Source: an uncultured Candidatus Cenarchaeum sp. (GTDB lineage: Archaea > Thermoproteota > Nitrososphaeria > Nitrososphaerales > Nitrosopumilaceae). From it: DNA of 64,000 nt. The stretch is taken from positions 604,161 to 668,160 of the forward strand of contig OY282369.1 of the NCBI GenBank assembly GCA_958295735.1, read 5' to 3'. This document shows positions 21,172-31,975 of this stretch, in pieces (within the stretch, counting starts at the first letter, position 1; each line of letters starts with the position of its first letter). The notes under the pieces were generated by a model. It did no database searches. It saw only the letters and a list, made by a program, of their open reading frames with translations, and had not been told where the DNA came from. The position numbers were made by a program, and so were the translations under genes.

Positions 21172-21480
21172 TTGACGGTGCGCGCGGGGCCGCGGTCCGG
21201 GCGCGGCTTCTGCCTGCCCCGGCCCGTGCCGGGCGGGGCGGCGGCGCGCCCGCGGCCGGGCGGGGGCGCCGCGGACGATCCCGGGCCCGCGCGGGGCGGG
21301 AAAAGCGGCGGCGCGCCCCCGTTCCCCCCCCCCCCCCCCGCCCCTCGTGGGCGCGCGCCCCGCGCCGTCCAGGTACCCGCGGGAAAAGCGGCGGCGCGCC
21401 CCCGTTCCCCCCGCGGCCCGGCCGGGCGGGAAAAGCCGCCGCGGGCGCGGGGCGTGCAGGGCCGGCGCGCCTCAAACCTC
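21172..21480. other. gene-free GC-rich spacer with a 16-C run
   Basis: No gene or promoter is supported in 21172-21476. It holds a C16 run (21324-21339) and two related GGGAAAAGCGGCGGCGCGCC blocks near 21298 and 21380. Confidence 0.6.
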
Positions 21481-26703: not shown

Positions 26704-27354
26704 TTATAATTGTAGTCTGGCCAAAAGTTTTGACAGATCGTCCATAGTGCAGGCAAAGACATTACGTTTGTTGGATGCTTGGCGGAGACTCTCGATCTTG
26801 GTAGCGCCGCGGATCGTATTCGGCAGGTTGTAGTATGGGCCGTCGGCTATGGCGACGAATGCATCATCAGACGAATGGGACTCGTTGGCTTCCTTTATGA
26901 ACAGGTGAAGATCGCTGTATTGGTTGTCTTGCGCGCCGCCGCTTTCCTTGGTGTATTTGTGGGTGGCATAAACGGTGTATTTTCCAGTTTGCCACTGAAA
27001 GTCTATAGTCTTGGCAGCCGGATTACCTCCCCTTTGTGTTAGTTCCTTCCTAGTCATAACTAGTCCGGCGCAGATGGATTTGTCAGAGTTGTGAAGATCA
27101 ACAAAATCTCTGACAGCATCCATTTCTCGAATGTGCTTGGCGGCCAGATTTTCGTAAAAGTTTTGTTTTTTTGGATCTTTCACGAAAAACCACCTGAAGA
27201 TGGGGTCACGTCGTATCTTGGCCTTTATCTGATCTTCTGACAATCCCGTCATGTCCACAAACGATTTGATTTTTCGGGCCGCGTCAGACAGTCTGAACGC
27301 TTTGTAGTTTTCGACCCGTGCTCGCTGGAGTTCGGCTTCCCAGTCAGGAACCAT
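26704..27354 (-). CDS. putative type II restriction endonuclease
   Basis: A 216-residue protein directly after an adenine methyltransferase. No database match can be run, but the stretch THKYTKESGGAQDNQYSDL followed by LHLFIKEAN looks like the core of a restriction nuclease, and the context is decisive: its ATG (27352-27354) lies inside the last codons of the methyltransferase (ATGGTTCCTGA, 11-base overlap). It would cut unmethylated foreign DNA. Base composition is clearly less GC-rich than the window, as for the methyltransferase, which points to horizontal transfer. Between it and the decayed paralogue (26437-26703) I see no gene. Confidence 0.6.
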   Translation of the reverse strand: MVPDWEAELQRARVENYKAFRLSDAARKIKSFVDMTGLSEDQIKAKIRRDPIFRWFFVKDPKKQNFYENLAAKHIREMDAVRDFVDLHNSDKSICAGLVMTRKELTQRGGNPAAKTIDFQWQTGKYTVYATHKYTKESGGAQDNQYSDLHLFIKEANESHSSDDAFVAIADGPYYNLPNTIRGATKIESLRQASNKRNVFACTMDDLSKLLARLQL

Positions 27355-28266
27355 ACGCGATCACAAACTTGCGTGCCAAGCCGTAGTCAAGTCGCCTCCG
27401 ATACATCCCGTCTTTGCGGAGCCCTTTGAACGGTGTCAGAAATACGTCAAACGTATTCTTGCGAAACGTTGTGAACCGGCGATTTAGTTCTTCTATGTTT
27501 GGACGGCTTATGCCGCTAATCCGTGTAATTGACCTGGAACTGAACTTGATGTCGTGGGAGATCCCCCCCCCCCGCAGAATCGTATGGATGGCCCCACAGT
27601 GTTGTCTATGCCGATGAGCCCGAGGTTGCCGTTCTTGTCGTTGAATCTGACGGACATCCTCTCGTTGGGTTGCGGTATGAAACGCTCTAGGTTTTTCACG
27701 GTGTCGGCGTAGCAGTTGTCATAGTACACGCGAGTGTCCCGAACTGGGTCTCCGAAGAGCGCCAAACAGACAGGATTCTCAGTGTCGTCAAATGTCTTGC
27801 TGTTGAGGAATATGATGTGGGACAGCCTGTCCCTGAAAAGGCCGCTTTGGAGGAATGATGCGGGGATGATGAAACCCACGTACCGGCAGTGCTCCAGCGC
27901 CAGCTCAAGGCAATGCTTGTAGAGGTCGTCAAAACCTATGTCGGGGTAGTGGATCTTCCGGCGGCGGGCAGAATACCGGCCTAGCCACGGCGGGTTGCTT
28001 ATGCATACGTCGTAGCCGTTCGGGAATTTGGTCAGCGTGTCCTGCTTGCGGACATGGGGGGATGCAGGTCTTATGTCGTATGACGCGAATCGCCTACACT
28101 GATCGGTGCTCTGGAGCATCCTGATCAAGTTGTTCCTTCCGGCAAACGGCTCCAAGACCACCCTCTCCTTCATGCGGATCTTTATGCCCCATCTGCGAAA
28201 GGGCCTCAGTTTGAATGGATTGCCCTGCGTGTAGTAACGCCCTTCCTCGCGCTTTTGCCGCTCCAT
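27344..28266 (-). CDS. N6-adenine DNA methyltransferase, frameshifted at an 11-G tract
   Basis: Modification enzyme of the restriction pair. SAM-binding motif I is EPFAGRNNL (residues 39-47) and the catalytic motif IV is SNPPW (90-94). The frame from ATG 28266 stays intact to about residue 230 and then enters a run of 11 G (27563-27573, C on the plus strand); the as-read frame ends early at 27508. Adding one G (or removing two) restores a frame reading ISHDIKFSSRSITRISGISR and on to RKFVIAYGS with a stop at 27344-27346, overlapping the nuclease start, about 307 residues. Either phase variation or a homopolymer sequencing error. A TATA-like TTTTTAATTACC lies upstream (rc about 28288-28300). 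Low GC suggests transfer. Confidence 0.85.
27563..27573 (-). repeat. 11-nt poly-G tract in the methyltransferase gene
   Basis: Eleven consecutive C on the plus strand (G in the gene). Tract lengths of 9 or 12 give the full-length enzyme; 11 gives a truncated one. Confidence 0.95.
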
Positions 28267-28357
28267 GCAGAAGAATGTCCGGGTCTAGGGTAATTAAAAA
28301 TTTCATGATAGACTAGTTCTGCGCACAATTTAAATATGAAACAGGGATGTGCGCAAC

Positions 28358-31182: not shown

Positions 31183-31975
31183 CGGCGGGCGGCTCCCCAC
31201 GCGGCCGGGCGGCTCCCCCGGGGGCGGCTCCCCACGCGGCCGGGCGGCTCCCCCGGGGGCGGCTCCCCACGCGGCCGGGCGGCTCCCCACGCGGCCGGGC
31301 GGCTCCCCCGGGGGCGGCTCCCCACGCGGCCGGGCGGCTCCCCCGGGGGCGGCTCCCCCGGGGGCGGATCCCCCGGGGGCGGATCCCCCGGGGGCGGATC
31401 CCCCCCCCCCCGCAAGGAGGCGGCTCCCCACGCGGCCGGGCGGCCCCGGGCGGCTCCCCCCCGCAAGGAGGCGGCTCCCCACGCGGCCGGGCGGCTCCCC
31501 CGGGGGCGGCTCCCCTCCCCCCCCCCTCCCACGCGGCCGGGCGGCTCCCCCCCGCAAGGAGGCGGCTCCCCACGCGGCCGGGCGGCTCCCCCGGGGGCGG
31601 CTCCCCTCCCCCCCCCCCTCCCACGCGGCCGGGCGGCTCCCCCGGGGGCGGCTCCCCTCCCCCCCCTCCCACGCGGCCGGGCGGCTCCCCCCCGCAAGGA
31701 GGCGGCTCCCCACGCGGCCGGGCGGCTCCCCCGGGGGCGGCTCCCCTCCCCCCCCTCCCACGCGGCCGGGCGGCTCCCCCGGGGGCGGCTCCCCCCCTCC
31801 CACGCGGCCGGGCGGCCCCGGGCGGCTCCCCCCCTCCCACGCGGCCGGGCGGCCCCGGGCGGCTCCCCCCCCCCTCCCACGCGGCCGGGCGGCCCCGGGC
31901 GGCTCCCCCCCCCCCCCTCCCACGCGGCCGGGCGGCCCCGGGCGGCTCCCAGGGAGCGGCTCCCCTCCCCGACGG
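31183..31975. repeat. large GC-rich degenerate repeat block
   Basis: About 790 bp made of variants of two motifs, CGGCTCCCCACGCGGCCGGG and CGGCTCCCCCGGGGG, with inserted C runs (C12 at about 31400) and CCGCAAGGAGG interruptions. All six frames are open through it, which is a composition effect; I find no gene. It starts four bases after a gene stop. Confidence 0.9.

What the first reader, a model, noticed from the sequence alone, without database searches (positions are those of the whole stretch)
27344..28266. Poly-G tract switches a DNA methyltransferase gene in an archaeal restriction-modification pair
The adenine methyltransferase frame breaks exactly at an 11-G run. Changing the run to 9 or 12 restores a continuous C-terminal region that reads on to an 11-base overlap with the nuclease start, so the rest of the gene is under selection or recently intact. 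G-tract phase variation of methyltransferases is well known in bacteria (Mod genes) but little described in archaea. A truncated methylase with an intact nuclease would also be dangerous, which makes the switch or a sequencing error the two options.
Basis: partly seen in the sequence, partly recalled or inferred. Interest (0 to 1): 0.78.

Follow-up and report, generated by a model that had tools for sequence, protein, structure and literature searches.

The report
Poly-G switch in archaeal restriction-modification gene
In a Cenarchaeum-type archaeon of the kind that lives in sponges, a run of 11 Gs breaks the reading frame of a DNA-methylating gene in the way bacterial on/off 'phase variation' switches do, and at least four other DNA-methylation genes in the same genome are broken the same way, which suggests that archaea also use this bet-hedging trick.

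Summary
On the minus strand, the 307-codon frame of an Eco57I-type adenine methyltransferase breaks at a G11 run (27563-27573). Runs of 9 or 12 Gs restore a conserved C-terminus ending in an 11-nt overlap with a downstream gene, modelled with high confidence as a PD-(D/E)XK-like nuclease (closest solved fold BstEII). The pair is a conserved, horizontally spread Type II-like restriction-modification (RM) cassette.

Evidence beyond the locus strengthens the phase-switch reading. The genome has about 35 methyltransferase genes; at least four more (Type III Mod G17, HmaB-type DUF1156 G16, Type ISP G10, Type IIG-like G13) are broken exactly at a tract, both halves matching one family. In 864 kb sampled, 72 tracts of 10 or more were almost absent from called genes (1 of 562). 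An orthologue in sponge archaeon S13 gained its own frame-breaking G10 at a different site. Related Nitrosopumilaceae carry tracts at 5' ends of surface-protein genes.

Length variation within a population was not shown, so switching is inferred. Sequencing error could set the apparent ON/OFF state but would not explain why tracts cluster in RM genes. I found no report of poly-G phase variation in archaea in an open-access search.

The parts
27508..28266 (-). Adenine methyltransferase ORF as assembled (252 aa, OFF-type frame with 11 G)
   Evidence: the ORF listing; Pfam Eco57I PF07669 E 5e-7, above cut-off; EPFAG and NPPW motifs invariant in homologues
27563..27573 (-). G11 tract at which the frame breaks (C11 on the + strand)
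   Evidence: 9 or 12 G restore the frame; 12 G aligns without gap to three homologues
27344..27562 (-). C-terminal 72 codons of the methyltransferase in the shifted frame, conserved (KFSSRSITRI...DVFLTPFKGLRKDG.YRRRLDY)
   Evidence: identity to homologues after the tract is as high as before it
26704..27354 (-). Putative restriction endonuclease, 216 aa, PD-(D/E)XK-like fold
   Evidence: AlphaFold pLDDT 93; Foldseek best hit BstEII E 4.4e-4, then Can2 and R.BspD6I small subunit; downstream of the MTase in about 30 homologous loci
27344..27354 (-). 11-nt overlap of MTase stop and nuclease start (ATGGTTCCTGA), probably translational coupling
   Evidence: same 11-nt overlap in L002, 8 nt in S13; coupling is inference
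28328..28337 (.). TATA-box-like ATTTAAATAT in the intergenic region shared with the divergent gene at 28349
   Evidence: read from the sequence; promoter role is inference

Best explanation
The G11 run is a slipped-strand-mispairing (phase-variation) switch in the methyltransferase gene of a horizontally acquired Type II-like RM cassette in a Cenarchaeum-genus archaeon. Shown: the tract sits in the gene; tract length sets the frame; the rest of the gene is intact and conserved; the cassette is conserved elsewhere; at least four further methyltransferase genes of the genome have the same architecture. Inferred: replication slippage changes tract length within the population; 9, 12, 15 G make the full enzyme (ON), other lengths make a protein lacking the conserved C-terminal (probably target-recognition) region (OFF); the overlapping nuclease, probably translated by coupling, falls with it. 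The population then carries a shifting mosaic of active RM systems against viruses and foreign DNA. The assembly shows one OFF-type state.
For: Frame arithmetic and overlap. Gap-free alignment with 12 G and undiminished post-tract conservation. S13 orthologue independently broken at its own G10, in frame with 8 or 11, from Illumina data (PMC6697440). Five of about 35 methyltransferase genes of the genome broken at tracts, both halves matching one family: Type III Mod (PADLOC PDLC03644 1-369 | 374-540), HmaB-type DUF1156, Type ISP (ResIII 2-47 | 55-163), Type IIG-like. Tracts of 10 or more otherwise almost absent from genes: 1 of 562 called genes; Fisher p = 3e-6, and 4e-5 without the window gene. 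Related Nitrosopumilaceae carry tracts at 5' ends of secreted surface genes, including three paralogues with a C run directly after the ATG.
Against: No reads, so no direct evidence of mixed lengths. Intact relatives in the same genus lack the tract. This lineage expands G runs in non-coding DNA generally, so some genic tracts could be passive. The gene/non-gene comparison is approximate: the gene caller was trained on high-GC genes and misses foreign ones. Only one genome of the species is held.
Confidence: 0.74

Rival explanations
1. Consensus length error: the true tract is 9 or 12 G and the gene is simply ON; the break is a long-read homopolymer artefact.
For: Tracts of 10 or more are the hardest lengths to call; the window genome's sequencing method is unknown here. 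S13 is only about 9x covered (PMC6697440).
Against: Frame-shift rate at G/C runs of 4-7 in coding DNA is flat at 1.4-3%, so the assembly is not generally error-ridden. An error cannot place long tracts preferentially in methyltransferase genes, and even if 12 is the true number, an 11-12 G genic tract remains a slippage-prone site.
Confidence: 0.12
2. Pseudogene: an RM gene under relaxed selection was inactivated by the lineage's general G-run expansion and is decaying.
For: RM genes are often dispensable; G runs expand genome-wide; some homologues (L083, L086, L087, L089) are broken without any tract.
Against: Each of the five broken genes has its lesion at the tract and is otherwise a long open frame (for example 215 + 1340 codons in L220, 109 + 808 in L215). 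The post-tract part of the window gene is as conserved as the rest. Non-RM genes, dispensable ones included, almost never carry tracts.
Confidence: 0.11
3. Transcriptional slippage (or ribosomal frameshifting) on the G run makes a constant fraction of full-length enzyme from an 11-G gene, so the tract tunes dosage rather than switching.
For: Slippage on long homopolymers is a known recoding route (PMC3711429).
Against: The well-known sites are mostly A/T runs. Tract position and length are not conserved between own, S13 and C. symbiosum-type copies, unlike programmed sites.
Confidence: 0.03

Closest known systems
Poly-G/C phase-variable Type III mod genes of bacteria (phasevarions; Srikhanta et al. 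2010, cited in PMC3711429)
   Same: Homopolymeric G/C tract inside a DNA methyltransferase frame; length sets ON/OFF; L207 in this genome is itself a Type III Mod broken at G17.
   Different: The window gene is a Type II-like MTase; host is an archaeon; switching and gene-regulation effects not shown.
Multi-locus phasomes of Campylobacter, Neisseria and Helicobacter (for example PMC6321876)
   Same: Many long G/C tracts, enriched in RM and surface genes.
   Different: Most long tracts here are intergenic in a high-GC genome; archaeal promoters and replication machinery; no variation data.
BstEII restriction endonuclease (PDB 9ibq)
   Same: Best fold match of the nuclease model (E 4.4e-4, TM 0.45 by query).
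   Different: 18% identity, partial superposition; no sequence match to any solved structure.
MTase/nuclease homologues in sponge-associated bacteria and cyanophages
   Same: Same gene pair and short overlap; cyanophage copies beside 'restriction endonuclease II'.
   Different: None of the surveyed homologues except S13 has a G/C run of 7 or more in the gene.

Membership tests
Type II RM system | DNA methyltransferase gene with catalytic motifs | tested here: met
   Pfam Eco57I above cut-off; invariant EPFAG and NPPW motifs
Type II RM system | Cognate endonuclease encoded next to it | tested here: met
   Conserved linked gene in about 30 loci; PD-(D/E)XK-like fold model nearest BstEII
Type II RM system | Both enzymes act on the same DNA site | not testable with these tools
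   Needs biochemistry or a methylome
Slipped-strand phase-variable gene | Simple repeat whose length changes put the gene in or out of frame | tested here: met
   (9/12 in frame; 8, 10, 11, 13, 14 out of frame)
Slipped-strand phase-variable gene | Both halves of the gene kept under selection | tested here: met
   Conservation before and after the tract similar; no further lesion in the frame
Slipped-strand phase-variable gene | Tract over-represented relative to other genes of the genome | tested here: met
   5 of about 35 methyltransferase genes vs 1 of 562 called genes, p = 3e-6; comparison approximate
Slipped-strand phase-variable gene | Reversible length variation within a population or between strains | not testable with these tools
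   No reads and one genome per species
Phasevarion | Switching methylation changes expression of other genes | not testable with these tools
   Needs methylome and transcriptome of ON and OFF states

The most novel reading that the evidence does not exclude
Nitrosopumilaceae, above all sponge symbionts, run a genome-wide poly-G/C phasome, the first described in archaea. RM genes of several types are switched by tracts inside the frame; surface-protein and glycan genes by tracts in the signal peptide or just upstream. Each archaeal population would be a mosaic of defence and surface states, convergent with bacterial pathogens.
Probability: 0.55. Interest if true: 0.87.

Novelty: new variant of a known kind. 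Interest (0 to 1): 0.74.

Why it matters
Simple-repeat phase variation is described almost only in bacteria, mostly pathogens and commensals; a 2025 review still lists archaeal distributions as future work (PMC11868660). A multi-locus poly-G phasome in a sponge-associated archaeal lineage would mean that the strategy evolved outside bacteria, would link host association and virus pressure to it, and would explain 'broken' RM genes in archaeal genomes that annotation pipelines call pseudogenes. It is directly testable with existing long-read sponge metagenomes.

Tried and rejected
(b) Viral contig scan for the MTase: nothing. (c) Codon-model frame test at the window locus: uninformative, because the island is 52% GC and the model was trained on 71% GC genes. 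(d) Pfam, NCBIfam, PDB sequence and PADLOC for the nuclease: no usable hit; approached by fold prediction. (e) Tracts in the open frames of MTase loci L206, L214 and L098: on inspection upstream of the likely start codon, not counted. L212 (C13) is in frame and L209 (G13) is near an uncertain start; neither is counted as broken. (f) L096:17070 C14 and several high-GC 'SHIFT' calls: judged spurious antisense frames or repeats. (g) S13 Type III Res C10: kept as a candidate only, because the start codon is uncertain. (h) Strain-level comparison of tract lengths: not possible with one genome per species.

Full report
What is in the sequence. The coding strand is minus. An adenine methyltransferase ORF starts at 28266 and, as assembled, stops at 27508 after a G11 run (27563-27573). 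Changing the run to 9 or 12 gives 306 or 307 aa ending at 27344; other lengths truncate. The next gene starts at 27354, an 11-nt overlap. The region is about 51% GC in a 71% GC window, so it was probably acquired horizontally.

Host. The window lies in a 3.17-Mb single-contig genome.

The two genes. The methyltransferase matches Pfam Eco57I above its cut-off and has EPFAG and NPPW motifs invariant in homologues. The second gene had no usable sequence-library match. An alignment of 25 homologues gave an AlphaFold model with pLDDT 93. Its best solved fold is the restriction enzyme BstEII (E 4.4e-4), followed by Can2 and the R.BspD6I small subunit; TM-scores are modest (0.45 or less). A genome-collection scan returned 80 methyltransferase homologues, many from sponge-associated bacteria. 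About 30 homologous loci in all have the nuclease homologue directly downstream, usually with a short overlap. Homologues also occur in cyanophages beside 'restriction endonuclease II'. This is a mobile Type II-like RM cassette; cleavage itself is untested.

Is the frame break meaningful? With 12 Gs the protein aligns without a gap at the tract to three homologues. The 72 codons after the tract are as conserved as the part before it. Of 83 homologous loci surveyed (S13 appears twice), only the window copy and that of 'Ca. Cenporiarchaeum stylissum' S13 contain a G/C run of 7 or more. Both are broken exactly there, at different places in the gene: S13 has G10, in frame at 8 or 11. S13 was sequenced with Illumina at about 9x (PMC6697440). 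With 8 tracts in 1.4 Mb, the chance of one in a given 0.97-kb gene is about 0.006.

Genome-wide test. Run lengths in 464 kb fall geometrically to 8 and then plateau at 9-13: 38 runs of 10 or more against about 5 expected. In 864 kb, 72 tracts of 10 or more were found; only one lies inside a codon-model-called gene (562 genes, 69% of the DNA), and none of 71 tested lies in a well-coded context. A model-free open-frame scan of the same stretches found no convincing broken non-RM gene.

Methyltransferase genes are the exception. Profile searches of the whole genome gave about 35. Besides the window gene, four are broken at a tract, with the two halves matching the same family. L207: Type III Mod, G17, PADLOC profile positions 1-369 before and 374-540 after. 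L215: HmaB-type DUF1156 methyltransferase, G16 in the glycine-rich motif I. L220: Type ISP enzyme, G10 after the Walker A motif, with ResIII split 2-47 / 55-163 and the post-tract half aligning to LlaGI and LlaBIII. L223: Type IIG-like N6 methyltransferase, G13. Fisher 5/35 vs 1/562 gives p = 3e-6; without the window gene p = 4e-5. The comparison is approximate: native and foreign genes differ in codon usage, and the gene caller misses low-GC genes.

Beyond this genome. In the C. symbiosum-type genome, tracts sit just upstream of several large secreted genes. In G013, three paralogous secreted genes carry a C run directly after the start codon, one in frame and two out of frame. In G057, G14 lies in frame inside a sugar-nucleotide epimerase-like gene. 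These are the gene classes that bacterial phase variation favours.

Mechanism. Shown: tract, frame dependence, conservation, and recurrence in RM genes. Inferred: replication slippage switches the genes between full-length and truncated forms. Because MTase and nuclease overlap by 8-11 nt in own, C. symbiosum-type (L002) and S13 copies, an OFF frame probably also lowers nuclease translation, which would make OFF safe. The main gap is the lack of reads.

Rivals. A length error could change the apparent state but not the placement of tracts. Passive decay is possible, since this lineage expands G runs, but single lesions at tracts in otherwise open long genes argue against it. Transcriptional slippage remains a minor alternative.

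Literature. Open-access searches found no description of homopolymer phase variation in archaea. A 2025 review names archaea as future work (PMC11868660). Enrichment of RM systems in sponge-associated Thaumarchaeota is known (PMC7848895, PMC6697440). Subscription journals and preprints were not searched.

Noticed in passing
L207 (G000:C1:2656500-2662500), tract at locus 3398: Type III Mod gene broken at G17 near its 3' third; the Res-like helicase follows in the same island (GC 0.38).
   Followed up: yes
L215 (G000:C1:35000-41000), tract at locus 4252: HmaB-type DUF1156 methyltransferase broken at G16 that runs through the SAM-binding motif I.
   Followed up: yes
L220 (G000:C1:192000-199500), tract at locus 6030: Type ISP (LlaGI/LlaBIII-like) single-chain RM enzyme broken at G10.
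   Followed up: yes
L223 (near G000:C1:2467660), tract at locus 2808: Type IIG-like N6 methyltransferase broken at G13.
   Followed up: yes
L212:2313 and L209:2689: In-frame C13 just before the DPPY motif of an N6/N4 methyltransferase, and G13 near the N-terminus of a Type III Mod: possible ON-state tracts.
   Followed up: partly
L271:2008, L272:2000, L273:2048 (genome G013): Three paralogous secreted surface proteins with a C run directly after the start codon in the signal peptide, one in frame (C14), two out of frame (C11).
   Followed up: partly
L127, L129, L132, L133, L134 (genome G001): G/C tracts of 11-17 shortly upstream of, or at, the start of large secreted genes; L131 has an in-frame G12 inside a SAM methyltransferase-like gene.
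   Followed up: partly
L258:2008 (genome G057): G14 in frame inside a sugar-nucleotide epimerase-like gene.
   Followed up: no
L221:2010 (S13, G028:C101): C10 at the 5' end of a Type III Res-Mod operon; an ATG upstream of the tract is out of frame with Res.
   Followed up: partly
L080:2130: Brachyspira catarrhinii homologue of the methyltransferase changes frame near an A8 run.
   Followed up: no
window 31400-31917 and 21324-21339: High-GC repeat array with C runs of 10-13, and a C16 run, both outside recognised genes.
   Followed up: no
L097, L106, L144, L148, L150: A repeated coiled-coil gene (MAESGVALLRKELAAALEKIAGLE...) with a G/C tract of 10-11 exactly 102 nt upstream in each copy: probably a mobile element that carries its own tract.
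   Followed up: no
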